Assembly (NCBI RefSeq): GCF_028201475.1
Contig: NZ_CP116384.1
Coordinates: 1,426,001 to 1,490,000 of the forward strand
Reading direction: 5' to 3'
Source: Vibrio sp. SCSIO 43137
Lineage (GTDB): Bacteria; Pseudomonadota; Gammaproteobacteria; Enterobacterales; Vibrionaceae
Length of the DNA stretch: 64,000 nt
Shown piece after piece: positions 1-44,220 of the stretch; position 1 is the stretch's first letter, and every line of letters starts with the position of its first letter. The position numbers were made by a program, and so were the translations under genes. Under the pieces are notes generated by a model, which saw only the letters and a list, made by a program, of their open reading frames with translations, was not told the DNA's origin and did not search any database.

Positions 1-1075
1 CTAACTCACGTACATTACCCGGCCAGTTATAGCCCCTGAGTATATCCATAGCATCGATAGAAACCTTTAGTACTTTGGTACCCAACTCCTTATTAGCTCT
101 GGCAAGCAAGCTTGGTATTAATTGCTCAAGATCTTCGCGCCGTTCCCTTAAGGGTGACAGATGGATTCTGACTACCTGAAGACGATAAAATAAGTCTTCC
201 CTGAACTGTTTTTTTTCAATCTGAGTTTCAAAGTTAATGTTAGTTGCGGAGATTATTCTGGCATTGGTTTTAATCGCCTGTTTACTGCCAAGGGGAATAA
301 ACTCTTTTTCCTGTAATACCCGCAATAACTTTGCCTGAATCGTCGGAGATAACTCTCCAACCTCGTCTAAAAATAAGGTGCCGTTGCGGGCGAGCTCAAA
401 CTTGCCGGCTTGATCAGCAACTGCACCAGTAAACGCGCCTTTTTTATGGCCGAACATTTCCGACTCAAGTAGATTTTCTACCAAAGCGGCACAATTAAGC
501 GCGACAAAAGGAGCATCTTTGTTTGTTCCTGCGTTGTGAATTGCGCGGGCAACCATCTCTTTTCCCGTACCAGATTCACCAGTAATCATAACCGAAGCAT
601 TAGTTTGAGAAACCCGCCCTATGGTTTTGTAAATCTCTTTCATTGCATTTGAAGAGCCAACCATAGAATTTCCATAGCTGTCAGGTATAAGCACTGCATC
701 CTGACTACTTGATTCCTGATACTCCATTGCAACATTGACAGCCCTATCCAGTTCATCGATATCTATAGGCTTATGGATATATTCGTCTGCTCCCTGCTGC
801 ATCGCTTCGATAGTACTTTCCATATCATGAAACGCAGTAATCATAATGACGCGGGAATCTTTACAGGACTGCTTAAACTCTGGTAATCCCTCAAGACCAG
901 ATTTGCCTTCCATACGGATGTCCAGAATTATGATGTTAGGCTGAAAAGCCTTCGCTGTAGCGACCCCTTCATCAACACAGCTGGCAACTTTTACATCAAA
1001 AGAAAGGGATTGATAGTGAAGCTGGAGAGTTCTGCTTATTCCGTTATCGTCATCCACTATTAGCATTTTTCTCAT
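1..1075 (-). CDS. NtrC-family sigma-54-dependent response regulator (partial, C-terminus beyond window)
   Basis: The first 358 codons are present; the frame runs off the left edge. I translated it by hand. The N-terminus is a receiver domain with the acidic pocket VDDD (residues 7-10), phospho-acceptor D52 in IIILDIR and the HKP lysine. A sigma-54 AAA+ domain follows, with Walker A GESGTGKE, the sigma-54 contact loop GAFTGA, Walker B GTLFLDE and the end motif WPGNVRE just before the edge. A C-terminal Fis-type HTH is expected outside the window. The start lies 4 bp after the stop of the histidine kinase, so the two form a two-component operon. Known role of the family: phosphorylated hexamers activate RNA polymerase-sigma54 from upstream sites. 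A matching promoter lies ahead of the divergent redox operon at 6.4 kb, which I infer is its target. Confidence 0.93.
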   Translation of the reverse strand, partial: MRKMLIVDDDNGISRTLQLHYQSLSFDVKVASCVDEGVATAKAFQPNIIILDIRMEGKSGLEGLPEFKQSCKDSRVIMITAFHDMESTIEAMQQGADEYIHKPIDIDELDRAVNVAMEYQESSSQDAVLIPDSYGNSMVGSSNAMKEIYKTIGRVSQTNASVMITGESGTGKEMVARAIHNAGTNKDAPFVALNCAALVENLLESEMFGHKKGAFTGAVADQAGKFELARNGTLFLDEVGELSPTIQAKLLRVLQEKEFIPLGSKQAIKTNARIISATNINFETQIEKKQFREDLFYRLQVVRIHLSPLRERREDLEQLIPSLLARANKELGTKVLKVSIDAMDILRGYNWPGNVREL

Positions 1076-1079
1076 TTAA

Positions 1080-3563
1080 TTATTGTTCCTTTGATGTTGC
1101 CTGTTTCGGTGTAGTGGGAAGCCTGATTCTTGCGAGCGTTCCGGATGAAGAGTGTGGAGACAAGGATATCTTTCCGTCATGGCTATCAATAATCCTTTTT
1201 ACTATTGCCAGCCCAAGCCCGGTTCCTTTTGCCTTCGTGGTAAAGAATGGCTCAAAAACCTTATCGACCATACATGGATCGATTGGATGCCCATTGTTAG
1301 TAATATCAATGATTAACTCTGTACCAGATTCCGTAATCATTATATTAGAGACTATTTTTACCCTTGCATCCTCCACATCTCCTGTGGCCTGAATCGAGTT
1401 AATCAATATGTTTTGAATCGCCTGACGCATTTTTACCGGATCAACATACACAGTGGGCAAATTCGAATGAAGCATTAAATCAAAAGCAACCTGAGCGTCT
1501 TTAGCCTGTTTTTGCTGGCTTGCCACCGCAGCCTCTAACAATTTGTTGATATCCAGCCAGGTAGGCTGTAATTGTTCGGGTTTCGAGTAGGCAAGTAGTT
1601 CTTCAAGAATAGCTTCCATGTATTTTACCTGCTCAAGAGAAATCCTAAACATCTCACTCTTGTTCGCACGTTCCTGAATCTGCAACACCATCTTTATAGA
1701 GCTCAAGGGGTTTCTCAAATCGTGCGCTATCATGTTGACGACTTTCCCGACTTCTGCCAGCTTTTCATGCTGAATACGTTCATTAGTCTGCCGCTCAACT
1801 TCTTTGGCCAGACGCTTTTCCTCGGTAATATCTTGTTTCACCGCAACATAATACAAGGTACGGTTTTCAACATCTTTCACCGGAGAAATTCTGGCTCGCT
1901 CCCAATAGAGCTCTCCGCTTTTCTTTCGGTTATGAAACTCTCCCTGCCACTCTTTGCCCTCTTTGAGAGTCTGCCACAAGCTCTGGTATTCCTGAGATTC
2001 CATCTCGCCTGACTGAAGAAACTTAGGGCTTCTGCCCATAACTTCGTCCCGGCTATATCCGGATAACTCACAAAAAACAGGGTTAACATAAACTATCTGC
2101 CCGGCAATATCCGTTATCATAACTGAGTTCTGGCTACTCTCCACTGCATGGCTAAGTTGCTGGAGCTGTTCCTGCGCCATTTTATGTTCTGTGACATCTT
2201 CTCCCAGCAGTGTCAGGGTAACCGCCTTCTCTTTCGATTCAGTAAATGTTGATGTCCAGGATACTAAGTGAATTTCTCCCGATTTACTGAGCACAACACT
2301 TTCACTTTGCGGCTGATGAGTCTGCTGCCTTATCGCTTCATCAAGTGCTTCCTGTGCCTGAACCTGCAACTCATCAGGAATAAACCTTTTAATCCAGGAG
2401 TAACCAATCACTTCATCCTTTTGATACCCTACAAGAGACAAAAAATAGTCGTTGCAAAAAGTAATAACACCTGCACGATTAATGCTAACGGCCGCCAGTT
2501 GAATATTTTCCAGTGTATGCCGGAACTGTTGCTCATACTGTTTCTGCTCAGTTAAATAGCGCGTTTGAACCCGGTAACGACTAAACAACCATGTTACCAG
2601 GCCAGTAATAAAAAAGAGCAAGCCGTAAACCAATAAAAAGTGCTCTACAAATGCCCAGCGGGACAAGTTAAACCTGCTCTCGGGAAATTCTGAAATAATG
2701 GTCCAGTTACCATTGTTTGGAGCAGAAACATGGGCGTAGGTGTAGTAGTTATTGCCTTCCAGTATTTGCCTTTTATCTGCAGTTTTCACATGTTCAAATA
2801 TCGCCGAAGGGATATTGTTCTGGGTATCAATGGCGTAACTGACATCACCACTGTCTGTCGGGTGAATCACGGCAACACCCTGAGGGTTAAACAGATAGAC
2901 GTGATTGATAAAGCTTGGTGCAACAGTGTAGAGCTTATCGATCAACCTTTTTGCTTTATAGTTGAGAATGATAACGCCAGTCCTGCTACCCTTTTCGTTA
3001 AAGACAGGGGTACCGACACGAATCGTCGGGTTAAGTGGCTTTTGCACAACACCTTCTTCAACATTAAGATCCATCGGAGAAATATAGACCTGGCCTCTTT
3101 GCAAGTTGTTGGAGTATTGCCAATAGTACCTGTGAGCCTTGTTCTGTAAGTCAGCCTGGTTTACAACTGATATTTCTCCCGCATTGTTATTGATTCGTAT
3201 CCGCTCCCAACCCTCTGTATCTATATACCGGATCTGATCATAATTTGGGTTATTAGTACTTAGCTGGATAAAGTACTGTTTCAAATCATTAAGTGGCGTT
3301 GCGTGGAGTGAAGTTACCTGACGGGTAACATAGGAAAGATTTTTAGCGTCAGCAGACATTCTGGTAAGTGTTTCTCCAAGTACCTCCTCAATTAAATCAA
3401 CAATAACTCTTTCGTTGTGTAATGCGTATTGTTGATCATTCTTAACGCTAAGGAAGTAATGCACACTCATAACAATGGCTAATGCTAAATAGGCAGGAAC
3501 AAGCCAGAGAAGAAGCTCAGATACGAAAATTAGTTTTTCCGGTAAAATATTCTCGCTTTCCAT
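1080..3563 (-). CDS. Membrane sensor histidine kinase (Cache-PAS-PAS-HisKA-HATPase)
   Basis: This 827-residue kinase has a transmembrane helix at about 11-38, a periplasmic double-Cache-like sensor (about 45-300) and a second helix at about 305-327. Two PAS domains follow (about 345-460 and 470-580; the second has the typical NPVFCELSGYSRDEV core). The HisKA domain has H614 in MIAHDLRNPLSS, and the ATPase domain has an N box (NILINSIQAT) and G box GTGLGLAI (780-787). The architecture is that of periplasmic-ligand sensors such as AioS or DctB relatives. The ligand cannot be read from the sequence. It sits between the HEAT-repeat gene and the NtrC-type regulator, all in one direction, and is probably co-transcribed with the regulator. 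Confidence 0.93.
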   Translation of the reverse strand: MESENILPEKLIFVSELLLWLVPAYLALAIVMSVHYFLSVKNDQQYALHNERVIVDLIEEVLGETLTRMSADAKNLSYVTRQVTSLHATPLNDLKQYFIQLSTNNPNYDQIRYIDTEGWERIRINNNAGEISVVNQADLQNKAHRYYWQYSNNLQRGQVYISPMDLNVEEGVVQKPLNPTIRVGTPVFNEKGSRTGVIILNYKAKRLIDKLYTVAPSFINHVYLFNPQGVAVIHPTDSGDVSYAIDTQNNIPSAIFEHVKTADKRQILEGNNYYTYAHVSAPNNGNWTIISEFPESRFNLSRWAFVEHFLLVYGLLFFITGLVTWLFSRYRVQTRYLTEQKQYEQQFRHTLENIQLAAVSINRAGVITFCNDYFLSLVGYQKDEVIGYSWIKRFIPDELQVQAQEALDEAIRQQTHQPQSESVVLSKSGEIHLVSWTSTFTESKEKAVTLTLLGEDVTEHKMAQEQLQQLSHAVESSQNSVMITDIAGQIVYVNPVFCELSGYSRDEVMGRSPKFLQSGEMESQEYQSLWQTLKEGKEWQGEFHNRKKSGELYWERARISPVKDVENRTLYYVAVKQDITEEKRLAKEVERQTNERIQHEKLAEVGKVVNMIAHDLRNPLSSIKMVLQIQERANKSEMFRISLEQVKYMEAILEELLAYSKPEQLQPTWLDINKLLEAAVASQQKQAKDAQVAFDLMLHSNLPTVYVDPVKMRQAIQNILINSIQATGDVEDARVKIVSNIMITESGTELIIDITNNGHPIDPCMVDKVFEPFFTTKAKGTGLGLAIVKRIIDSHDGKISLSPHSSSGTLARIRLPTTPKQATSKEQ

Positions 3564-3714: not shown

Positions 3715-6072
3715 TCAACAGTCTTGTTCTAATAGCAGCCCCATCAACTTAATCGCGTTTGGCTGATGATGATCTCTTAACTCTTTTACCTTTTCAGCTA
3801 AAAGCTGTAGCGCTAACACCTTATTGTTTGCAAATACATCTTGAGCAACTTTGAGGCATTCATCATTATCAATAGCGACATCAATCAATAAACTAAAACT
3901 TATATCGAACTTATTAGGGTAAAGTGCAGCCAATCTTAGTGCTTGTGCTTTCACTCCACTAGATGAATCAGACAAACCGCGCCTGATAACCGCTGTTACC
4001 GCTTCTTTTTGATTTAACTTTATTTTGTCGATATGAAACTCAAGTGAGTTAAACGCACAAAACCTGACATGATCATTTGAATCACTTACCAAATGCAGTA
4101 ACAGGGGTATCGCCTTTCCGGCAGGTAACACAGAAAGAAAACCCGCCGCTGACTGTTTTGTTAAATCATCACCGTGATAAACAATATTACCTGCCGCTCC
4201 CAGCCCATTGTCCACCGCACTGTTATCCGGCAGAGCTTTTTTGATGTTTTGTAATGAGTGGAATATCTCTCTTAGCTCCGATGGCTGGTTTCCAAGTACA
4301 GCTTCCAGAAGCAAAGCCGCTGAATAGTCTGAAGGGGACGCTCCCAGTGACTTAATGGCCAATATCTTGTTAGGCAATGTCGGTAGTTTTACGACTTTTT
4401 TTCGATTCAGCTCGAGTTCGTCTGCACTATCAAAATTGTCTTTAACCAACTGGGCGTAATCACTCAACGCATCGTCCAGTTCATCGACCATATCAACAAT
4501 ATGTTGCTGCTGATCAGGCTCTGTTGATGCCGCACCAAGTTCTGATTCCAGGTTCGCCTGAGTTATCGCTCCCAACGTTGAGTTTGGAGTGTTAACAATA
4601 GTAAGAGGTAAATCGACTCTTTCTTCATACGCTTCCAGCAATGTTTCAAGCTCTTTTGTTTCAAGATCTTTTCCTTGCGGATTTTCAACCTGTTGCTGTC
4701 CGCCCGATTCATTAGGCTCATCTTGTTCTATCTGATTTACATCTATGGCGTCCGGATAAGCGTTGCTGCCCAAAATGGCTACTTTAATAAACCTTCTGCA
4801 GGTGGCAGATTCAGATTTAGCCAACACGTCAAAGGCAGCCTGTCTGACACTCACACTGAAATGGTATTCTTGTGTGTGTTCATCCATCCGGTGAATATAA
4901 GATTGCAATCTTTCCAGAAGAGCTATGTCATAACCTTGTACAGTTGCAACCTTGCGGATAAGCCCAACAAAAACGGCATTGTTCTGTTCATTAGAATCTA
5001 AAGCATGTAAATAAAGCTCCAGTAGAGTCTTAGTTTGTTCCGGCTTCAGACAGGAGTGAACTAGAACCTCGGTGGCATTAATTAAAGATTGAGCCGGAGA
5101 TGCCCAAAGAAGATCGATAACCCGATCAATATGCTCACTATTGATCTCATCAAAACGGGCCAGCAACTCAAACAACTGAGGTCTGGCATTGCGCTCTGAA
5201 AGCTCGATATAATTAATAAGCCTTAATTGATCAACTTCATCATTGCAACTAAAGCCTTTCAATGCCGTCATCGCCGCTTTTTGTACGCCACTGTCTGTAT
5301 CTTTCAGTAATTGCACAATATCCCAGAAGTACTCATTCGCTCCTTTTTCTGTAAGCCCTTCTACTGCCAATTTACGCACAATAGGGTCTTCATCCCGCAA
5401 CTGTTTAAACAAAAACACTCTTGCTATCTGCTCATTGCTATAAAAGAGAGATTTGATTAATTTCCTTTTGGAGGCCAGTGTTGCATCAGGTAGTCGGTTA
5501 ATTATCCAGTCAACATCATGCTTTACGATTCCCTGATAAAGACGGGACTCAAGTTCTGGCTCAGGATCAGAATCTAAGATGCTTAGAAACTCAGGAAGAT
5601 ATTTGTGACGACTATTGCTTACTAATATTTCAACCGCCTTTAGCTGAATATCCCACCAGTCATCCCACTCGCTTGTAGTTGTTAAAATATCATCTTCTGC
5701 CCTGCCACCAGCGCAACGGAGCATAAACGCCTCTACTTTCTCGTCTGACATTTTGTTCTCAAGCGCGTCCATCGCCGCCAGTCTGGCATCTGCATCGGGG
5801 TGATACTGTGCGACTTCAAGCAACCGGTCAGTATTCCCAAGCCCAAGCCGGAATAGTGTATTCGCACAATCAATCACAACATCCGGATCTTCATGATACA
5901 AATTGTTATCCAACCCTTCTTGTGCAGCCTGTGCTGATATCAATGCCCTTGCACTGTAACAGCGTTGAGCTTCATCACCATTTTCAAGCAATTCAATTAA
6001 TACCGAAACAGGGTCAGGGGTGGTGTGGCTACCCTTATCTGTCGCTGAAAGTTCTGTTTCACTTACATGCAT
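3715..6072 (-). CDS. HEAT-repeat protein of unknown function
   Basis: This 785-residue protein is built mostly of helical repeats. Phrases such as DPDVVIDCANTLFRLG, DEDPIVRKLAVEGLTEKG, DTDSGVQKAAMTALKGF and SNDHVRFCAFNSLEFH recur through residues 20-430 and 600-780, as in HEAT/PBS-lyase-like repeats. A low-complexity acidic, Gln-rich linker lies at about 445-560. No signal peptide, membrane helix or catalytic motif is seen, so it is probably a cytoplasmic scaffold or chaperone-like protein. It starts opposite the redox operon and lies upstream of the kinase/regulator pair. By position it may help assembly or regulation of that operon, but this is inference only. It could instead be an unrelated neighbour. 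Confidence 0.8.
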   Translation of the reverse strand: MHVSETELSATDKGSHTTPDPVSVLIELLENGDEAQRCYSARALISAQAAQEGLDNNLYHEDPDVVIDCANTLFRLGLGNTDRLLEVAQYHPDADARLAAMDALENKMSDEKVEAFMLRCAGGRAEDDILTTTSEWDDWWDIQLKAVEILVSNSRHKYLPEFLSILDSDPEPELESRLYQGIVKHDVDWIINRLPDATLASKRKLIKSLFYSNEQIARVFLFKQLRDEDPIVRKLAVEGLTEKGANEYFWDIVQLLKDTDSGVQKAAMTALKGFSCNDEVDQLRLINYIELSERNARPQLFELLARFDEINSEHIDRVIDLLWASPAQSLINATEVLVHSCLKPEQTKTLLELYLHALDSNEQNNAVFVGLIRKVATVQGYDIALLERLQSYIHRMDEHTQEYHFSVSVRQAAFDVLAKSESATCRRFIKVAILGSNAYPDAIDVNQIEQDEPNESGGQQQVENPQGKDLETKELETLLEAYEERVDLPLTIVNTPNSTLGAITQANLESELGAASTEPDQQQHIVDMVDELDDALSDYAQLVKDNFDSADELELNRKKVVKLPTLPNKILAIKSLGASPSDYSAALLLEAVLGNQPSELREIFHSLQNIKKALPDNSAVDNGLGAAGNIVYHGDDLTKQSAAGFLSVLPAGKAIPLLLHLVSDSNDHVRFCAFNSLEFHIDKIKLNQKEAVTAVIRRGLSDSSSGVKAQALRLAALYPNKFDISFSLLIDVAIDNDECLKVAQDVFANNKVLALQLLAEKVKELRDHHQPNAIKLMGLLLEQDC

Positions 6073-6206: not shown

Positions 6207-6292
6207 GTTCAAAATTGAACAAAACGTTAAACACTAGTCGTTGTTTCTGAACGTTTCGTTCACTTTTTCCCATTGAGATCCAGGTCTCAATG
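6207..6292. promoter_or_regulatory. Cluster of dyads upstream of the sigma-54 promoter (candidate activator sites)
   Basis: The 370-bp divergent intergenic region holds three clean inverted repeats. GTTCAAAATTGAAC (6207-6220) is a perfect palindrome. GAACGTTTCGTTC (6249-6261) has GAACG/CGTTC arms. CATTGAGA and TCTCAATG (6271-6278 and 6285-6292) form 8-bp arms around a 6-bp spacer. They lie about 50-130 bp upstream of the -24 element, the usual place for bacterial enhancer-binding protein sites. The GTTC/GAAC half-site is shared by the first two dyads. Binding by the adjacent NtrC-type regulator is inferred. The divergent HEAT-gene promoter must also lie here, but I could not place it. Confidence 0.6.
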
Positions 6293-6337: not shown

Positions 6338-6355
6338 TTGGCTCAAAAAATGCTC
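6338..6355 (+). promoter_or_regulatory. Sigma-54 (-24/-12) promoter
   Basis: TTGGCTCAAAAAATGCTC matches the sigma-54 consensus TGGCAC-N5-TTGCW, with the invariant GG (6340-6341) and GC (6352-6353) exactly 10 bp apart. Transcription should start near 6365, about 78 bp before the first gene of the redox operon. Dyads upstream and the divergent NtrC-type regulator fit this reading. Confidence 0.8.
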
Positions 6356-6442: not shown

Positions 6443-7534
6443 ATGAGAAAAATGCTAATCCTTGCTGCTACTATCAGTGTCTCATGTTCAGTGTGGAGCC
6501 AATCCGATACTAAATCGTTCGGCTCTTTACCTAGCCTGAAGATAGACTCAGCCAAAGCAGCACTTGGAAAACGCCTGTTCTTTGATAATCGATTGTCTGG
6601 TAATACCGCGCTGTCTTGCGCTTCGTGTCATAAACCCGAAAACGGATATGCACATCCAGACGCTCTGGGGCCTGCTTATACAGGCAGCAAAGGATTTAGA
6701 AACGTTCCGACTCTAATAAATACTGTTTATAAGAAAGTGTGGTTTCATGATGGCCGCATCGGCACTAACCTAAACGATGTAACACGTGAAAACATTACTG
6801 AAGACTGGCTAATGAACATGGATATGCGTTTGATGCAAGAGCGCCTCAAACAAGATCCGATATACGTAAAAATGTTCAAAGACGCCGGATATGGAGAGCC
6901 ATCAAATGGTTCTGTCCGTAAAGCCATTCCGGAATACCTGAAAACCCTCACCTCTGATAAAACACCATTTGATAAATCGAAACTCAGTAAGTCTGCGAAA
7001 AAAGGGTTTGATCTTTTTAAAGGTAAAGCAGGGTGCGCATCTTGTCATAACGGTCCGTTGTTTACCGATGGGAAGCCATACAATACGGGCGTACCGGAGA
7101 ACCTTGATATCTTCACTGATCCAATGCGGCACCAGACTTTCATCGCTTTTAACATGTTTATGGGTAATGAAAACTATATGAATCTCAAACGTGACGTTGG
7201 TGCACATGTTCAGACTCACAAAACCGATAAGAGTGACTATGGCAAGTTTATGACGCCGACGCTGCGGGAACTTAAACATACCGCACCTTATATGCACAAC
7301 GGCATGCTGGCAACTCTTAGTGATGTAGTGGCGTTTTACAATCAGGGCGGAGGCAAAGATATGAACAAAGACTCCCGCCTTAAGCCTCTTAACTTATCCG
7401 CTCAGGAACAAAAAGACTTAGTTGCTTTTCTTGAGTCCCTATCAGGTGAGCCTCTGACAACAGATGATCACGTGTGGACTAACCAAGATTACAGCTACGA
7501 GTTGATTTCTGACTGGCGCAACGTGAAAAACTAG
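6443..7534 (+). CDS. idrP1: Di-heme cytochrome c peroxidase-family protein (IdrP1-like)
   Basis: This 363-residue protein has a cleavable signal peptide (about 1-19) and two CXXCH c-type heme sites, C59-ASC-H63 and C198-ASC-H202. These belong to two cytochrome domains of the bacterial CcpA/MauG family. Motifs such as LGKRLFFDNRLS, FRNVPTLIN, WFHDGR and APYMHNGMLATLSDVVAFYNQGGG are typical of it. It acts in the periplasm. It is the first gene of an operon with a second di-heme protein, a Rieske protein and a molybdopterin enzyme. In the known iodate reductase clusters, IdrP1 and IdrP2 are proposed to receive the partly reduced iodine species or H2O2 by-product. A good AAGGAG site precedes the ATG. 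Confidence 0.85.
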   Translation: MRKMLILAATISVSCSVWSQSDTKSFGSLPSLKIDSAKAALGKRLFFDNRLSGNTALSCASCHKPENGYAHPDALGPAYTGSKGFRNVPTLINTVYKKVWFHDGRIGTNLNDVTRENITEDWLMNMDMRLMQERLKQDPIYVKMFKDAGYGEPSNGSVRKAIPEYLKTLTSDKTPFDKSKLSKSAKKGFDLFKGKAGCASCHNGPLFTDGKPYNTGVPENLDIFTDPMRHQTFIAFNMFMGNENYMNLKRDVGAHVQTHKTDKSDYGKFMTPTLRELKHTAPYMHNGMLATLSDVVAFYNQGGGKDMNKDSRLKPLNLSAQEQKDLVAFLESLSGEPLTTDDHVWTNQDYSYELISDWRNVKN

Positions 7535-7543
7535 GAGGACGAG

Positions 7544-8770
7544 ATGAAAACACAATGGATCAACTTGTCCGCATTGATGACAGTTGCACTCACTTTTGGA
7601 GCAACTCAGGCAATTGCGAATCAAGACTTAGAAAAAGCAGATAAAATTGCAGCTTCTCTGCCCCCGGTTACTCTGAACGGAAAACAATATCCGGCACTTG
7701 CACCTTTAGGAACGGTACCAACCCCTAAAGATAACCCTACAACCCCGGACAAAGTCGCATTGGGAAAACAGCTGTTCTTTGACGGAAGATTAGGCGGAGA
7801 CACATCAAGTCCTTGCTCAGCTTGCCACATTCCGACATTAGGCTGGGACTTCCCTGCCGATCTGTCATTGGGTTATCCGGGCACAGTTCACTGGAGAAAC
7901 AGCCAAACCATTATTAATTCGGCTTACTATCAAAAGCTATTCTGGGCCGGCTCATCGAAATCACTTGAAGCGCAGGCAAAAAGTGCTGCTAAAGGTGGTG
8001 TTGCTGGTAACGGTGAAGATGACTTAATGGAAGCACGTCTTGCATTGGTACCAGAATATGTTGAGCAGTTTAATAAGATTTTTGGTGATAACTATCCAAA
8101 AGTTAGTAACGCCTGGAAAGCCATCGCAGCTTTTCAACGCACACTAATTCAAACCGATACTCCACTGGATAAGTACCTGCTTGGAGATAAAAAAGCACTA
8201 AGTAAATCTCAGTTAAGCGGTAAGGCTCTGTTTGAAGGCAAAGCCAACTGTATTGCGTGTCACAACGGTGCACTGGCCTCTGATCAGAAGAACTACAACG
8301 TAGGTGTTCCTACCAATCTGCGCTGGGAGAATGACGCACTGGCTCAGATTACCTTCCGTTATGAGTTGTACGCCAAAGGCTCTAACGAAAAAATGTACCG
8401 TGAAACCAAAGCAGATCCCGGCGTCTATTTTCGTGGCAAACGCAAGGAGATGAAAGGAAAGTTCCGTACCCCAAGCCTTCGTTACACCATGTATACCGCA
8501 CCATTTATGCATAACGGCACCATAGCAACCTTGGAAGATGTGGTGGACTTTTATGACCGTGGTGGTATTGCAAAAGACGGAAGAACCACCGACTTCCCTC
8601 ATTCGAAAAGCGCATTAATTAAACCTTTAGGTTTAACTAAGCAAGAAAAAGCCGATCTACTGGAGTTCCTGAAGGCCTTCTCAGGAGAGAAGATCATTAT
8701 GGATCACCCTAAATTACCTGAATATCAGCCTTTATTTACTATGGAAGAGTTGGAGGAGGTAAAAAAATGA
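7544..8770 (+). CDS. idrP2: Di-heme cytochrome c peroxidase-family protein (IdrP2-like)
   Basis: The 408-residue product has a signal peptide (cleavage near AIA-NQD, about residue 26) and two heme c motifs, C91-SAC-H95 and C236-IAC-H240. Its family core motifs are LGKQLFFDGRLGGD, WRNSQTIINSAYY and APFMHNGTIATLEDVVDFYDRGG. It follows the first di-heme gene by 9 bp and its TGA overlaps the start of the Rieske gene (ATGA), so translation is probably coupled. The two di-heme proteins differ in sequence and length, so they are not a recent duplication. Pairing two such proteins with an AioBA-like enzyme is the hallmark of idr rather than aio operons. The assignment rests on gene content. Confidence 0.84.
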   Translation: MKTQWINLSALMTVALTFGATQAIANQDLEKADKIAASLPPVTLNGKQYPALAPLGTVPTPKDNPTTPDKVALGKQLFFDGRLGGDTSSPCSACHIPTLGWDFPADLSLGYPGTVHWRNSQTIINSAYYQKLFWAGSSKSLEAQAKSAAKGGVAGNGEDDLMEARLALVPEYVEQFNKIFGDNYPKVSNAWKAIAAFQRTLIQTDTPLDKYLLGDKKALSKSQLSGKALFEGKANCIACHNGALASDQKNYNVGVPTNLRWENDALAQITFRYELYAKGSNEKMYRETKADPGVYFRGKRKEMKGKFRTPSLRYTMYTAPFMHNGTIATLEDVVDFYDRGGIAKDGRTTDFPHSKSALIKPLGLTKQEKADLLEFLKAFSGEKIIMDHPKLPEYQPLFTMEELEEVKK

Positions 8771-9390
8771 GTACGCAAAATAAACAAAATGCTCAATCCG
8801 CTCGTGGTCAAAACAGCAATGCAGAAAGTGCAAATGAACATAACAAATGCATGATGTCGCGGCGGGATTTTCTAATCTACAGCGGCGCTACCGCCGGTAC
8901 GGCAAGTGTTATGTCTCTGACACTGTTTCCGGGTACCGCTCAGGCTAAAAAAGCTCAGGCACGTGTTGTCGGATACCCAAGACAGTTGGTCGGTAAACTT
9001 AGTCAGCTTAAAGAGAACAAACCTGTCTACTTTAACTACCCGGATGATGGCCCGAACTCACAAGGTATTCTGGTAAAAATGGGCGTTTCAGCAGGCGGAG
9101 GCCTTGGTCCCAAACAAGATGTTGTCGGCTTTTCCCTTATGTGCACACATCAGGGAGGCCCGCTAAACAGCCAGTATAAAGTCGTAGGTGAACACAGAGT
9201 ACTTGGACAATGTCCTTTCCATCTGTCTACGTTTGATATGCGTCGCCACGGTATCATTGTCTCCGGTCAGGCTTATGAAAGCCTTCCTCAGGTACTTCTT
9301 GAACTAGAAGGCGACGATATATACGCAGTAGGCATTATGGGGCTGCTATTTGGCCGAACGGAAAATCTGATCGCGATGCAGGAGGCGTAA
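8767..9390 (+). CDS. idrB: Tat-exported Rieske [2Fe-2S] subunit (IdrB/AioB-like)
   Basis: This 207-residue protein has a Tat signal with twin arginines in SRRDFLIYSG (R32, R33) followed by a hydrophobic segment and an AQA cleavage site near residue 60. The Rieske cluster ligands are C126-T-H128 and C149-PF-H152. The two extra cysteines that form a disulfide in many Rieske proteins are absent: CTHQGG and CPFHLS stand where CTHLGC and CPCHGS would be. The gene overlaps the upstream di-heme gene by 4 bp and ends 2 bp before the molybdenum subunit. The large subunit has no signal peptide, so it is likely exported folded, together with this subunit. Confidence 0.88.
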   Translation: MSTQNKQNAQSARGQNSNAESANEHNKCMMSRRDFLIYSGATAGTASVMSLTLFPGTAQAKKAQARVVGYPRQLVGKLSQLKENKPVYFNYPDDGPNSQGILVKMGVSAGGGLGPKQDVVGFSLMCTHQGGPLNSQYKVVGEHRVLGQCPFHLSTFDMRRHGIIVSGQAYESLPQVLLELEGDDIYAVGIMGLLFGRTENLIAMQEA

Positions 9391-9392
9391 TC

Positions 9393-12089
9393 ATGACCAC
9401 TAATTTTTATATTCCGCAAGATCACGCTCCGCTGCCACCTAAAAATGCGGAAGTGATTACCACTGCATGTGACTACTGTATTGTAGCCTGCGGCTACAAG
9501 GTATATCGCTGGCCTTTAGAGCAGAGTAATGGCGGTATGAAAGCCGATGAAAACGCATTCGGCATAAACTTTCCCAGTGCACCGCTTCAGTCATGGGTTG
9601 CACCTGCCCAGCACAATGTCGTAATGCATAATGGCAAGCCACACAATATTGTTGTGGTTCCGGATAAAGACACCAAAGTCGTCAACAAGACTGGTGACTC
9701 ATCTATGCGTGGCGGGCTGTTAGCTCAAAAGCTGTATAATCCGGCGACCGGAACCAGAGACCGTCTGACTCAGCCACTGGTCCGTATTGGCGGCAGTTTG
9801 CAGCCTGTACCATGGGATTTCGCCTTGGAAATTGCAGCCGAAGTTGGTAAGCATGTTATTGATACTCATGGTTCTAATGCCTACGGAGTAAAAACATTTT
9901 CTTATCAATATATTGAAAACACTTATGCCATTACCAAGTACGCTCTCAGACATATCAATACAGCGAACTTTACCTTCCATGACACACCATCGGATGTGAC
10001 CTCAACCCCCGGCTTCCGTGATGCCGGATTCGACAACTTTGGGCCGAGCTATGATGACTGGGGTGCAGCAGATACCCTTATGATTTGTGGCACAGACCCG
10101 TATGAAACAAAAACCATCATTTTCACTCAGTATATTATGCCGGCCGTTCAGAGAGGCATGAAAACGGTCATGCTCAACCCCAGGGAAACTGCTGGTATCG
10201 CATGGCTTAAGAAGCATGGTGGCCTCCACATCGACCTCAATCCGGGCTCTGATAACCTTGTGGTTGGCGCCATTATCCGGGTTATTCTGGAAAATGGCTG
10301 GGAAGACAGTGAATGGATAAAGAACTGGGTAAACAACAAATGGGAGTCCAGCTCAGGCTTTGGTCAGGGAACCCGTAACACTCCTTGGCAATGGCGTACC
10401 ACCTGGGGCAAGTTCCAGACTGATGGTTTCGAAGGATATAAAAAATGGAATCTGGAGCAAAAAGAGTACGATCCTGACTATGCTGCAAAAATGGCTGGTA
10501 TTGATGTGGCTAAAATTTACAAAGCCGCTGAAATGCTGGCGAAGCCGGTTAAAGGAGTCAGGCCAAAAACATCTATCGGTATCGAAAAAGGGTTTTACTG
10601 GTCAAACAACACAGGTAACACCAATGCTATCTCTTCACTTGCGACCATTATTGGTACTGGTGGACGGGAAGGCCGCGTAGTCGGACGCTTTGGTGGTCAC
10701 CAGCGGGGAGGACAGTCAGGTGGTAAGTTACCCCGCAACAAGTCGCCAGAAAAAGTACCGGGAAGAAGAAGACGTTCAATAGATACTGACAGATACACCT
10801 ATTCAGGCCACACACGATTTGCGCACGTAATTGGTACTACCTGGATTCAGGCAATGTGTGGTAGTCAGGGACTGCAGAAAAAGTTCTGGGAATTGACGGT
10901 TGCCAACCCGCATCAGGTGTATTCCTATGATAAAGCTGAAATCATTGAAACACTTAAAAAGCGGGCTGACTCCGGTGGCATGGTAGTGATAAATCAAGAT
11001 ATCTATCTACGTGATCCAATCGGAGCTAAGTTTGCTGATATTGTCTTCCCTGCTGCTACCTGGGGCGAAGTTGACTTTATGCGCGCTAACGGAGAGCGCC
11101 GGCTACGCCTGTATCAAAAATTTGCCGATGCACCGGGTGATGCACAACCAGACTGGTGGATTATTTCCCAGCTAGCGACCCGGATGGGATTCGATGGTTT
11201 TGACTGGAACAATTCTAATGATGTCGCAGAAGAAGCATCTCGCTTTAGCCGGGGTAGTCGTAAAGACTTCCATATGATCAAAGTAGCCGCCCATGCGGAA
11301 GGAAAAACCCTGCATGAAAAGCTGAAAGAGTATGGGACTGACGGTATTCAGGGGCCGGTATTCTACAACTACGATACAAAAGAGTTGGTAGGCACTAAAC
11401 GCCTTCATGATACTGAGTTATCAACGGCTGCACTGGAGGAAAAAGGGTTAGCTGACGGGCCTCAGGGCGCCAACGTTCTGAAGAAGCAACTGACTGGCTT
11501 TAATAGTCAGACAGGTAAAGTGAACCTGCAAAAACACCCATGGAACCTGTTTAGTGACTTCTATGAGTGGTTGCAGCCAAAAGAAGAGGAGCTTTGGTTC
11601 TCAAACGGACGGATAAATGAAATCTGGCAATCCGGTTTTGATGACGTTGAACGACGTGCCTACGTTATTCAGCGCTGGCCGGAAAACTGGGTAGAAATTC
11701 ATCCGGACGATGCCGCAAAACGCGGTATTGAGTCAGGTGATCAGGTGATGATGTACTCAAACCGGGTCGCTAATTTCAAAGATACTATTCTTGGTGTTCA
11801 CGGTGATGATTTTCAGTTCAGCAAACTGATGGAAAATGGTCATATCAAGCTAGACAAAGCAGCTGTAACGGCAGTGGCAATAGTAACTCCAGCGGTTAAA
11901 AAAGGCGTACTGTATGCCAATATGATTGATATGCGTCAACCATCTAATGCTCTCACTACTCGAGTTGTCGACCAGATCAGCGGTAACTACAACTACAAAA
12001 TGGGAGTTGCCAATATCAAGAAACTGGGTGAGTCAAAATATAAGAGTGAGTTCCGTTCATTCTCTTTTGCACCACGTAACATTACCTAA
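9393..12089 (+). CDS. idrA: AioA-like molybdopterin oxidoreductase, probable iodate reductase large subunit
   Basis: This 898-residue DMSO-reductase-superfamily enzyme has an N-terminal Fe-S site C26-DY-C29-IVA-C33 and, in the fourth ligand place, Ser (GDSSMRGG, S103/S104). That predicts a [3Fe-4S] cluster as in arsenite oxidase AioA. Bis-MGD-binding segments follow, including MLNPRETAG, GRFGGHQRGG (R432, H436) and the C-terminal WPENWVEIHPDDAAKRG. No Cys, SeCys or Ser Mo ligand is evident, which fits the Aio branch. From memory of A. faecalis AioA, the arsenite-binding Arg and His of the GGHQ segment are kept. The other pair (His in the ECHATRE region, and Glu) aligns to Pro206 and Asn. Together with two di-heme partners this favours iodate reductase over arsenite oxidase. 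Substrate is inferred. Confidence 0.85.
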   Translation: MTTNFYIPQDHAPLPPKNAEVITTACDYCIVACGYKVYRWPLEQSNGGMKADENAFGINFPSAPLQSWVAPAQHNVVMHNGKPHNIVVVPDKDTKVVNKTGDSSMRGGLLAQKLYNPATGTRDRLTQPLVRIGGSLQPVPWDFALEIAAEVGKHVIDTHGSNAYGVKTFSYQYIENTYAITKYALRHINTANFTFHDTPSDVTSTPGFRDAGFDNFGPSYDDWGAADTLMICGTDPYETKTIIFTQYIMPAVQRGMKTVMLNPRETAGIAWLKKHGGLHIDLNPGSDNLVVGAIIRVILENGWEDSEWIKNWVNNKWESSSGFGQGTRNTPWQWRTTWGKFQTDGFEGYKKWNLEQKEYDPDYAAKMAGIDVAKIYKAAEMLAKPVKGVRPKTSIGIEKGFYWSNNTGNTNAISSLATIIGTGGREGRVVGRFGGHQRGGQSGGKLPRNKSPEKVPGRRRRSIDTDRYTYSGHTRFAHVIGTTWIQAMCGSQGLQKKFWELTVANPHQVYSYDKAEIIETLKKRADSGGMVVINQDIYLRDPIGAKFADIVFPAATWGEVDFMRANGERRLRLYQKFADAPGDAQPDWWIISQLATRMGFDGFDWNNSNDVAEEASRFSRGSRKDFHMIKVAAHAEGKTLHEKLKEYGTDGIQGPVFYNYDTKELVGTKRLHDTELSTAALEEKGLADGPQGANVLKKQLTGFNSQTGKVNLQKHPWNLFSDFYEWLQPKEEELWFSNGRINEIWQSGFDDVERRAYVIQRWPENWVEIHPDDAAKRGIESGDQVMMYSNRVANFKDTILGVHGDDFQFSKLMENGHIKLDKAAVTAVAIVTPAVKKGVLYANMIDMRQPSNALTTRVVDQISGNYNYKMGVANIKKLGESKYKSEFRSFSFAPRNIT

Positions 12090-12100
12090 CCTACCACTTT

Positions 12101-12130
12101 AGGGAGCTGAAAGGCTCCCTTTTCTTGTTT
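12101..12130 (+). terminator. Rho-independent terminator after the Mo subunit gene
   Basis: AGGGAGC and GCTCCCT form a perfect 7-bp stem with a 6-nt loop, followed by a T-rich run (TTTCTTGTTTT). It lies 12 bp after the stop of the oxidoreductase gene, so the small cytochrome downstream is probably expressed partly on its own. Confidence 0.88.
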
Positions 12131-12140
12131 TAATTTATTC

Positions 12141-12168
12141 AAATACTTACGGAAGCAAATAAGTATTT
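12141..12168. promoter_or_regulatory. Inverted repeat upstream of cytochrome c gene
   Basis: AAATACTTA (12141-12149) and TAAGTATTT (12160-12168) are perfect 9-bp arms around a 10-bp spacer. A further ATACTTA copy lies about 8 bp downstream, just before the ribosome site AAGGAG. It could be a protein operator or a leader hairpin for the cytochrome gene. No protein can be named. Confidence 0.45.
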
Positions 12169-12193
12169 TCAAACAATACTTAAGGAGCAATTT

Positions 12194-12508
12194 ATGAAAG
12201 CAAACAGCGCACTAATATGTGCTGGCCTGATATTCGGTTTGGCATCTGCACCATCATTAGCAGCAGGAGATCCTCAAGCCGGAAAAGCAAAAGCAGCAAC
12301 ATGTATCGCTTGCCACGGTGCAAATGGTATCTCGGCTGTAGATCTTTACCCTAATCTGGCAGGGCAAAAACAGGCATATATGGTGACACAATTAAAAGCC
12401 TTCAAAAGCGGTGAAAGAAAAGATCCGACGATGACGGCTATGGTTACGCCTCTATCAGATTCAGACATCGAAGACTTAGCAGCTTTTTACTCCAGCCTGA
12501 CTCCCTAA
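12194..12508 (+). CDS. Periplasmic class I cytochrome c
   Basis: This 104-residue protein has a signal peptide (cleavage near LAA-GDP, about residue 24), one heme site C37-IA-C40-H41 and a distal Met (M80 or M83 in [11 protein letters not shown]). It resembles one domain of cytochrome c4 or c553-type electron carriers. It follows the molybdenum enzyme after a terminator. It most likely shuttles electrons between the respiratory chain and the Rieske/molybdenum enzyme, as small cytochromes do next to aio and idr operons. Strong Shine-Dalgarno TAAGGAG. Confidence 0.87.
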
Positions 12509-42381: not shown

Positions 42382-44220
42382 ATGAAATTAAATCAAGTAT
42401 TGACACATACTAATCAAGTAGAACGGTCAAAATTCATAAATTGCATAGATAAGCTATGCCAAGACTCAAAAGATGACAAAGCACTGTCCAACCAACTAGA
42501 CAAAATCGACGGTCAGCTTAAAGCAGCTTCTGGCAACGAAATTACTCAGCTATTTGGTTTAGTTAAAGGGCACTTCAAAAAGTTTATTCAGGAACAAATC
42601 GCACTAGGTGGTCCTCAGGTATCACTACTTATTAATATCCTTTCTCGTGATGGCAACTGCATTGCAACTGTTCCGTGGATTGAGTCTCTTTATGCGAAAG
42701 AATATAAAGAAATCAACGAGCTAAGCAGCGATATCTCGAAGCAAATTTCCGAATCAGATTCTGTTGATTTTGACAGAATTGCCAGATTAAAACTCTACCG
42801 CGATTGCATGCACGCTGCATTTAGCAATGACCTGAAGTCTAATAGAGCAGCGAAGGTCTCTGAAGATGAACGTACCGTCCTCAATACCCTATCTGAAGGT
42901 TTAAAATTATCCAGAGAAGAAATTTACGCTCTGGAACATTCGGTAGATCCTATCCCTGAGCTTGGAATCGATGCAGCGTTAGAGTACTTAAGAGAGAACG
43001 GAATAATTCTGGTTAACCGACGCCGTTCAGAAGTGATGATTGCTGATGAGATTGTGGCAATAATCCACGAACTGATTGGGAAAGAGCTGCCAGACAAGTA
43101 CGTACTAAGAATTCTTCGCTCTTTATCCGATGCTGAGTTATCACATATCTTGAAAGCGCACGGGCATAAGATCCGGGGTGTAAGCAGACAAGAAAAAATA
43201 GCGACTATTGCTCACTCAGGTCTATCAATCAGAAGCATACTCTCAACTGACCTTCACACAGAAGACTCGACACAAAACCAGCGTAAAGATCGGATTAAGC
43301 AGTTAATCGAAGATATGAGCTTAAATGTTCAGCGTATTGGTACGCGTTTGCATGACAGAATCGATGTACTGATCGATTATCTCAAAACCAGCGCTGAAGA
43401 AGAGTTTAATACTCTAAGTGTGAGTGGCTACAAAGAGTTATTAGAACGACTAAGTACTACCACCCCTGATGTTGAAGAAAGAATACGCTCAGACTTTGAA
43501 ATCGAAAACAAAGAAGCATTAGATCCAGAAAAACTCAAAGCTCTGGGGATCACTCCTTTTGATATTCTTTACCTCTATAACAACGAGGAAATCAAAACGA
43601 TTCGAAATGACATGGCTTTACCAAAGAAAGGTAATCCAAGACTTCAAATAATCGACAGTTTCGCAAGTGCCAATGATCGACTAGTAGAAAATTATCACCT
43701 GTTAGCTTGTAGAGATCTGCAAGGCTTGTTGGCTGCCGGAATTGATATCAAAGAAGCAGACATCGGCGTTAAGTTTGAAGAAGCCACACGTTCGATTCTT
43801 GAGCAATTAGGTATGACGGTAGATGAGGATCTAAGAAAAGATATCAACACAGCTAAAGACAAGGCAGATATCATTGTCTCGCTGGAAAATGATGATGTCA
43901 TTGTAGGTGAAGCTAAGTCTTTCAAAAACGGTCAATTTGCTAAGTACTCGTCAACATCAAGACAAGTTAAATCTTACGTTAAAAGATGCGAATCAAACGG
44001 ACACAGAGTTGCTCAGGTACTTATTGTAGCGCCAGCATTCTCTGATGACTTTGTAGATGCCGCCGATATGGATACCGACATCAATATTTCTTTGCTGGAA
44101 GCTGAAGGACTGCAAAAAATACTCAACGCTTACAAGCAAAGACGGAACCCTAACTTTTCGCCAAAATTACTGACAAAAGGCGGGTTGCTAAAGGCAGACC
44201 TGATATCTAAGTCGATTTAG
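42382..44220 (+). CDS. Large protein with C-terminal PD-(D/E)XK nuclease domain, unknown family
   Basis: This 612-residue protein is not recognised as a whole. The last 155 residues have a restriction-nuclease core: E466 in KFEEATRSILEQLG, D496 in DKADIIVSL, E510-A-K512 in VIVGEAKSF and Q528 in RQVKSYVKRC, followed by HRVAQVLIVAPAFSDDF. Residues about 247-283 (LSDAELSHILKAHGHKIRGV) resemble a SAP-type nucleic-acid-binding helix pair. The rest (1-245) is helical and may include a coiled coil (100-190). No signal peptide or helices are seen. It is a single gene with a strong terminator, between an orphan regulator and a KAP NTPase, in an AT-rich accessory stretch. A DNA-cleaving defence role is inferred, not shown. 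Confidence 0.75.
   Translation: MKLNQVLTHTNQVERSKFINCIDKLCQDSKDDKALSNQLDKIDGQLKAASGNEITQLFGLVKGHFKKFIQEQIALGGPQVSLLINILSRDGNCIATVPWIESLYAKEYKEINELSSDISKQISESDSVDFDRIARLKLYRDCMHAAFSNDLKSNRAAKVSEDERTVLNTLSEGLKLSREEIYALEHSVDPIPELGIDAALEYLRENGIILVNRRRSEVMIADEIVAIIHELIGKELPDKYVLRILRSLSDAELSHILKAHGHKIRGVSRQEKIATIAHSGLSIRSILSTDLHTEDSTQNQRKDRIKQLIEDMSLNVQRIGTRLHDRIDVLIDYLKTSAEEEFNTLSVSGYKELLERLSTTTPDVEERIRSDFEIENKEALDPEKLKALGITPFDILYLYNNEEIKTIRNDMALPKKGNPRLQIIDSFASANDRLVENYHLLACRDLQGLLAAGIDIKEADIGVKFEEATRSILEQLGMTVDEDLRKDINTAKDKADIIVSLENDDVIVGEAKSFKNGQFAKYSSTSRQVKSYVKRCESNGHRVAQVLIVAPAFSDDFVDAADMDTDINISLLEAEGLQKILNAYKQRRNPNFSPKLLTKGGLLKADLISKSI

What the first reader, a model, noticed from the sequence alone, without database searches (positions are those of the whole stretch)
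6443..12508. Idr-type iodate reductase operon in a Vibrio-like genome
Two di-heme peroxidase-family proteins, a Tat Rieske protein and an AioA-like molybdenum enzyme lie in one operon, followed by a cytochrome c. This set is the known signature of idrABP1P2 (dissimilatory iodate reduction) rather than aioBA. Seen: all heme, Rieske and [3Fe-4S] motifs. Inference: substrate. The order here is P1-P2-B-A.
Basis: partly seen in the sequence, partly recalled or inferred. Interest (0 to 1): 0.8.

Follow-up and report, generated by a model that had tools for sequence, protein, structure and literature searches.

The report
Iodate reductase operon in a Vibrio
A marine Vibrio carries a known type of gene set for reducing iodate to iodide, present twice in two different versions, together with a helper-protein gene that closely tracks the enzyme in the genomes sampled and that no paper I could search describes as part of it.

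Summary
In detail: at 6443-12508 (+) lie idrP1, idrP2, a Tat Rieske idrB, an AioA-like idrA and a small cytochrome c. The large subunit is one of 60 Idr-type rows split from 11 arsenite oxidases (SH-aLRT 100) and lacks the arsenite-pocket Glu. P1-P2-B-A is the ordinary order (91 of 101 loci). Vibrio was already named among carriers in print (PMC8692401). The core finding is a known kind.

Beyond it: (1) a HEAT-repeat protein (3715-6072, -) occurs in exactly the 23 of 227 genus genomes that have idrA, in 13 of 14 core-Idr genomes outside the genus, 0 of 4 outliers and 0 of 9 AioA genomes; (2) upstream of idrP1 lie a conserved GG-N10-GC element and two palindromes 32 bp apart, with NtrC-type regulator and kinase genes next door; (3) the genome holds a second idr operon of another clade, with a pseudoazurin-like gene and without kinase or cytochrome c gene beside it; (4) IdrP1 and IdrP2 carry Tyr where peroxidases have Met. 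Activity is inferred, not shown.

The parts
2..1075 (-). sigma-54-dependent NtrC-type response regulator (REC-AAA+-Fis HTH), 447 aa, cut by the window start; whole gene in L008:13732-15075
   Evidence: Sigma54_activat 234 bits, Response_reg 81, HTH_8 26; GAFTGA present
1080..3563 (-). sensor histidine kinase, 827 aa (HK sensor/Cache, PAS, HisKA, HATPase)
   Evidence: best NCBIfam model is AtoS, below its cut-off
3715..6072 (-). HEAT-repeat protein, 785 aa, no signal peptide apparent by eye; idr-linked partner
6215..6230 (+). palindrome 1 of a pair, proposed activator site
6247..6262 (+). palindrome 2 of the pair, 32 bp further on
6338..6354 (+). GG-N10-GC element (sigma-54 -24/-12-like), about 90 bp before idrP1
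   Evidence: weak alone (p = 0.04 against resampled sequence), conserved in the alignment of 11 upstream regions
6443..7534 (+). idrP1, dihaem protein with Tyr299 at the position of the peroxidase Met
7544..8770 (+). idrP2, dihaem protein with Tyr337 at the position of the peroxidase Met
8767..9390 (+). idrB, Rieske [2Fe-2S] subunit with Tat motif
9393..12089 (+). idrA, Mo catalytic subunit with [3Fe-4S] motif
12194..12508 (+). small cytochrome c with an apparent signal peptide, proposed electron donor
   Evidence: beside idr in 11 of 18 type I records

Best explanation
The operon encodes a periplasmic iodate reductase of the Idr family. In the published model, electrons from the quinol pool pass through bc1 and cytochrome c to IdrB and on to the Mo centre of IdrA, where iodate is reduced to hypoiodous acid, which ends as iodide, while IdrP1 and IdrP2 remove peroxide or other oxidants; I take this over for this genome, with the gene at 12194 as a likely cytochrome c donor (inferred; I did not look for bc1 here). 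IdrP1 and IdrP2 look like MauG/MbnH-type dihaem proteins. IdrA has no signal of its own and is probably exported with IdrB through Tat. Before export, the HEAT-repeat protein probably serves IdrAB in the cytoplasm, most likely in cofactor loading or quality control (inference from co-occurrence, the apparent lack of a signal peptide and its presence in operons that lack the kinase). The operon is probably switched on by the neighbouring kinase and NtrC-type regulator acting on two palindromic sites and a sigma-54-type promoter (the sites are conserved; their function is inferred). A second, differently equipped idr operon lies about 265 kb away on the same contig.
For: Tree: 60 Idr-type versus 11 AioA rows, support 100; the window nests with Vibrio, Photobacterium, Enterovibrio, Aliivibrio, Alginatibacterium, Moritella and Marinomonas rows. 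Pocket: the Glu found in 11 of 11 AioA is Ser (102), Ala (16) or Asp (4) in 122 Idr-type rows, while the His, Arg and His are kept in all 122. P1-P2-B-A in 91 of 101 loci. HEAT: the same 23 of 227 genus genomes carry HEAT and idrA, 0 of 204 others carry HEAT; class sample of 369: idrA 15, HEAT 14, both 13; outside the genus 13 of 14 core-Idr, 0 of 4 outlier and 0 of 9 AioA genomes. Control sites: the paired pattern occurs in 10 of 11 genus genomes with this operon type and 1 of 216 others (8 of the 11 were used to derive it; of the three unseen, two hit and one missed). Literature: idrA deletion abolishes iodate respiration in Denitromonas (PMC8692401, section read); idr genes are induced by iodate in Roseovarius azorensis and others (PMC11445184, section read).
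Against: NCBI's arsenite oxidase models pass their cut-offs on IdrA (393 versus 359 bits) and IdrB (120 versus 95.65). No experimentally tested IdrA sequence came up by name in the capped lists, so the link to tested enzymes goes through clade, operon and motif. One core genome (G240) lacks HEAT; the four outlier genomes (enzymes about 50% identical) lack it too, three of them although they hold a dihaem pair, so HEAT is not strictly required for every Idr-like enzyme; G701 has HEAT and no idrA found. Related genomes are not independent. The sigma-54-like element is weak on its own, and 2 of 18 type I records have no GG-N10-GC in the 449 bases searched. The SRRxF-type Tat pattern matched only 52 of 92 IdrB ORFs, though the window's matches. 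The kinase could serve something else.
Confidence: 0.85

Rival explanations
1. It is an arsenite oxidase (AioBA) that has picked up two dihaem genes and a cytochrome c.
For: Large and small subunit pass NCBI's arsenite oxidase cut-offs; best PDB matches are AioA and AioB; many public names of relatives read 'arsenate reductase (azurin)' or 'arsenite oxidase'.
Against: Outside the AioA branch; 27-29% identical to the AioA rows against 48-94% to Idr-type rows; pocket Glu lost; dihaem pair in 91 of 101 loci and cut off by contig ends in the rest. The two named AioA plasmid loci have ars genes and no annotated dihaem pair; I did not search the idr neighbourhoods for ars genes.
Confidence: 0.04
2. 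It reduces iodate not for respiration but as an electron sink or detoxification at low oxygen.
For: Marine aerobic carriers reduced iodate under static conditions but could not grow anaerobically on it (PMC11445184, discussion read).
Against: Nothing in the sequence separates the two; Vibrio are usually facultative anaerobes (general knowledge), and a cytochrome c gene lies beside the enzyme.
Confidence: 0.4
3. The enzyme's natural substrate is another oxyanion, with iodate a side activity.
For: No activity data for this clade of Vibrio enzymes; the outlier lineage with Asp in the pocket shows the family varies there.
Against: In a marine relative idrA is induced by 0.1 uM iodate (PMC11445184, abstract).
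Confidence: 0.08
4. The HEAT protein belongs to signalling with the kinase and regulator, not to enzyme assembly.
For: In the window HEAT, kinase and regulator lie in a row on one strand; type I records have the HEAT in 18 of 18, the kinase in 18 of 18 and the regulator in 17 of 18.
Against: Type II records have a HEAT gene in 16 of 16 and the kinase in 0 of 16; 18 loci, mostly Ruegeria, have HEAT directly after idrA on the same strand.
Confidence: 0.2

Closest known systems
idrABP1P2 iodate reductase of Pseudomonas sp. SCT, Denitromonas sp. IR-12 and Azoarcus sp. DN11
   Same: Four genes, their cofactor motifs and signals; sigma-54 regulator and kinase genes upstream as in DN11 and a c-type cytochrome gene nearby as stated for SCT (PMC10149662, section 7); idrP1P2 before idrAB (PMC8801600, section 7).
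   Different: A HEAT gene is not mentioned in the idr papers I could search (term searches; library search); CxH-X20-CxxH in IdrB against X18 reported for DN11; Ser at the Mo-ligand column, while PMC10100899 (passages) tables IdrA as having no amino acid ligand (the SCT residue was not seen); two idr operons in one genome.
AioBA arsenite oxidase
   Same: Subunit plan, [3Fe-4S] and Rieske centres, His/Arg/His of the pocket.
   Different: AioA neighbourhoods lack the cytochrome c peroxidases (PMC8692401, section 10); pocket Glu replaced; separate branch; no HEAT gene in 9 of 9 AioA genomes.
MauG / MbnH dihaem enzymes
   Same: IdrP1 and IdrP2 score best on the MauG and MbnH models and align a Tyr with that of the solved 'Di-heme enzyme' 6e1c; that MauG-type enzymes have a Tyr ligand there is recalled.
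   Different: Far below those families' cut-offs (182 of 444 and 217 of 363 bits); partner is IdrAB; I did not look for a MauG or MbnH substrate gene.

Membership tests
Idr iodate reductase | IdrA groups apart from AioA with other P1P2-linked large subunits | tested here: met
Idr iodate reductase | idrP1 and idrP2 directly before idrBA | tested here: met
Idr iodate reductase | CX2CX3CX70S in IdrA; CxHxnCxxH and Tat motif in IdrB; two CxxCH in P1 and P2 | tested here: met
   (IdrA motif in 97 of 100 ORFs; IdrB n is 20 in 76 and 18 in 16 of 92); n is 18 in DN11
Idr iodate reductase | Close to an experimentally tested IdrA sequence | not tested
   no SCT, IR-12, DN11 or R. azorensis sequence came up by name in the best 120 of each protein search
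Idr iodate reductase | Reduces iodate | not testable with these tools
   needs enzyme or mutant
AioBA arsenite oxidase | AioA groups with known arsenite oxidases | tested here: not met
AioBA arsenite oxidase | Glu of the arsenite pocket (E203, numbering and role recalled) | tested here: not met
   Ser in the window, Glu in 11 of 11 AioA
AioBA arsenite oxidase | NCBI model cut-offs | tested here: met
   the models also pass on the Idr-type rows, so they do not separate Idr from Aio
Classical cytochrome c peroxidase | axial Met on the high-potential haem (ligand role recalled) | tested here: not met
   Tyr aligns with the Met of 3o5c, 1eb7 and 4aal; Tyr in 90 of 90 P1 and 95 of 95 P2
ArxA | groups with ArxA/ArrA | not tested
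   no ArxA row in the tree; ArrA model gives 26.5 bits against a cut-off of 1600

The most novel reading that the evidence does not exclude
Iodate reductase has an overlooked, near-universal fifth gene: a cytoplasmic two-armed HEAT-repeat protein that acts as a dedicated assembly or quality-control factor for the Tat-exported IdrAB pair, a kind of Mo-enzyme helper unlike the known TorD/NarJ/NapD types.
Probability: 0.45. Interest if true: 0.65.

Novelty: new member of a known kind. Interest (0 to 1): 0.5.

Why it matters
Bacterial iodate reduction bears on the iodide that reacts with ozone at the sea surface (PMC11445184, introduction). 23 of 227 sampled species of the genus carry idrA, so easily grown hosts could be used to test it. 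A HEAT gene that tracks idrA almost perfectly gives an independent marker to tell iodate reductases from arsenite oxidases, which the standard models do not separate, and points to a component that no paper I could search mentions. Two clades of idr in one genome, with different neighbouring electron carriers and regulators, allow a direct comparison.

Tried and rejected
A strict sigma-54 pattern gave no hit in 88 upstream regions and a looser one hit 2 of 88, not the window; the element was seen only after aligning 11 type I upstream regions. Its single-site score is weak: window p = 0.04; the other type I records 0.01 to 0.62, and two (L013, L015) have no GG-N10-GC. The resampling is first-order, so it keeps dinucleotide make-up only approximately. 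A single palindrome is no better than its reversed control in the genome (155 and 134 against 173 and 160), so only the spaced pair is used as evidence. The FNR/CRP-like patterns tried gave nothing in the window or in 14 of 15 other regions of that list; single matches came up in L115 (type II) and L126 (type I).

I considered Ser at the Mo-ligand column as a real Mo ligand. It alternates with Ala on the tree (10 changes of state in all) and published text says IdrA has no amino acid ligand, so I do not claim it.

The fold search of the HEAT model listed only eukaryotic HEAT scaffolds, TM-scores at most 0.42 among the 50 shown, no function. Three protein searches gave no named, tested IdrA in their best 120. 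The idea that the second idr copy is a recent duplication is rejected: the two IdrA are 81% identical and sit in two separate clades.

Dropped or partial: L157 (fragment) was left out of the alignment and the tree; the tree used 71 of the 135 extracted rows (67 different). The 101 loci hold at least three genomes twice (L009/L130, L025/L119, L026/L120), and the 122 rows likewise hold repeats. One search kept the best 80 of 272 relatives. Neighbour clusters for kinase and regulator are broad: 7 of 16 type II records also hold some member of the regulator cluster within reach, which I take for other regulators without checking.
Full report
Observation. Families: two CCP_MauG dihaem proteins, a Rieske protein, a molybdopterin enzyme with the Rieske_3 (3Fe-4S) domain, and a cytochrome c. 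The cofactor motifs are complete.

Is it Idr or Aio? NCBI's arsenite oxidase models pass on both IdrA and IdrB, and many public names follow them, so family models alone mislead. In a tree of 71 rows, 11 AioA (two named: Acidiphilium multivorum AIU301 and Acuticoccus sp.) are split from 60 Idr-type rows with support 100, and the window sits with Vibrio, Photobacterium, Enterovibrio, Aliivibrio, Alginatibacterium, Moritella and Marinomonas rows (a quick tree, and the program warns that long branches meet at this split). In the alignment, the AioA pocket His, Arg and His are kept in all 122 Idr-type rows, but the Glu (11 of 11 AioA) is Ser in 102, Ala in 16 and Asp in 4; the Mo-ligand column is Ser in 97 including the window, Ala in 23, Met in 1 and Thr in 1, against Ala 10 and Gly 1 in AioA (residue numbers recalled). 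The 16 Ala rows at the Glu column are all type II Vibrio enzymes, but the own second copy has Ser. The order P1-P2-B-A is shown by 91 of 101 loci; the other 10 show only its downstream part and start at contig ends. PMC8801600 (section 7) already states that idrP1P2 precede idrAB. PMC8692401 names Vibrio spp. among carriers (one passage). The core finding is therefore a known kind in a known genus.

The dihaem proteins. The papers seen call IdrP1 and IdrP2 cytochrome c peroxidases or peroxidase-related. Their best curated models here are MauG and MbnH, far under cut-off. Where the solved peroxidases shown in the alignments have Met, both carry Tyr, in the sequences VAFY and VDFY, and the solved 'Di-heme enzyme' 6e1c also has Tyr there. 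The Tyr is invariant in 90 of 90 P1 and 95 of 95 P2. A full-text search for iodate reductase with MauG found no paper. MauG-like chemistry is an inference.

The HEAT gene. Divergent from idrP1 lies a 785 aa HEAT-repeat protein without an apparent signal peptide. In 100 loci with an IdrA ORF it is next to the operon in 56 (38 divergent upstream, 18 same strand downstream), near in 5 and not seen in 39, of which 19 hold under 13 kb. A profile search over whole genomes is cleaner: in the genus, 23 of 227 genomes have it and they are exactly the 23 with idrA. In the class sample of 369 genomes, idrA is in 15 and HEAT in 14, with 13 in common. The two idrA-only genomes, G732 and G944, hold outlier enzymes about 50% identical with Asp in the pocket; the HEAT-only genome, G701, is a 90% complete draft of the same genus as an idr carrier. 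Outside the genus, HEAT is in 13 of 14 core-Idr genomes (missing in G240), 0 of 4 outliers and 0 of 9 AioA genomes at E 1e-8. Fisher p values are 5e-32 (genus) and 5e-21 (class), but related genomes are not independent. In G821 the HEAT gene lies on another contig than idrA, beside a CydA-like gene and c-type cytochromes. The model has two confident helical arms and a low-confidence linker at about 441-566 (mean pLDDT 82). An STLxA[ILMV] motif, in the linker of the window protein, is found in 37 of 61 proteins against 1.2% of shuffles; 24 lack it, the Ruegeria ones among them, and two of the 37 have a second match elsewhere. Full-text searches for HEAT repeat with iodate gave two unrelated papers, with molybdoenzyme none and with arsenite oxidase none; most subscription papers are not in that library, and I saw the SCT paper only as a citation. 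My reading, an assembly or quality-control factor for IdrAB, rests on location, co-occurrence and its presence in loci without the kinase.

Control region. Next to HEAT on the same strand lie a Cache/PAS kinase and an NtrC-type regulator with the sigma-54 interaction domain and GAFTGA. DN11 has a sigma-54 regulator and kinase pair upstream of idr (PMC10149662, section 7). Upstream of idrP1, 11 aligned type I regions share a TGG-N9-TG core that extends to GG-N10-GC in 10 of 11, and two palindromes 32 bp apart. The paired pattern hits 11 of 227 genus genomes: 10 of the 11 with a type I operon, each about 3.1-3.2 kb before idrA, and one unrelated (G032); the reversed control hit one genome (G133). 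Eight of the 11 were in the alignment; of the three unseen, G116 and G118 hit and G040 did not.

Two systems. The genome has a second idr operon at 1.17 Mb of the same contig, IdrA 81% identical. Across the genus, 11 genomes have type I, 14 type II, and only G000 and G210 have both. Type I and II are separate clades. Type I records (18, some not Vibrio): HEAT 18, kinase 18, regulator 17, cytochrome c 11, cupredoxin 4. Type II records (16): a shorter HEAT 16, cupredoxin 16, kinase 0, cytochrome c 0, some regulator 7. The cupredoxin is pseudoazurin-like, below that model's cut-off (83 of 110 bits). So the two operons probably draw electrons from different carriers and answer to different signals (inference).

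Verdict. An ordinary, well-supported idr operon by itself; the HEAT partner is the part worth a bench test.

Noticed in passing
L006:8222-14242 (own genome) and L025, L026, L113-L125: Second idr operon type with a pseudoazurin-like gene convergent to idrA; by eye, most type II upstream regions share a TATGATC..ATCATA palindrome, not clearly present in the own copy.
   Followed up: partly
L028, L046, L047, L049, L057, L062, L085, L088, L173, L174: A CydA-like membrane protein (14 of 101 loci), a cytochrome c with two haem domains (15) and a large cytochrome with an ethylbenzene-dehydrogenase-like domain (21) lie near idr or its HEAT gene in non-Vibrio carriers; a possible dedicated quinol-to-IdrAB route, which PMC8692401 says the Denitromonas cluster lacks.
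   Followed up: partly
L165, L167 (G457, G732); L166 (G248); L168 (G944): Deeper Idr-like enzymes, about 48-50% identical, with Asp at the pocket Glu column and no HEAT gene in the genome. A dihaem pair lies beside the enzyme in G457 and G732, on another contig in G248, and no such pair was found in G944. Perhaps another substrate.
   Followed up: partly
L132 / L112 (G208:C2 around 722539-723198): A second, partial idrA-like stretch about 29 kb from a type II operon in the same genome.
   Followed up: no
window 42382-44220 (+): 612 aa ORF with no Pfam match in an AT-rich stretch, next to a KAP-type NTPase gene at 44910-46841; possibly a mobile or defence region.
   Followed up: no
public protein names: Many IdrA-type proteins are named 'arsenate reductase (azurin) large subunit' or 'arsenite oxidase large subunit'; the curated models pass on both kinds.
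   Followed up: partly
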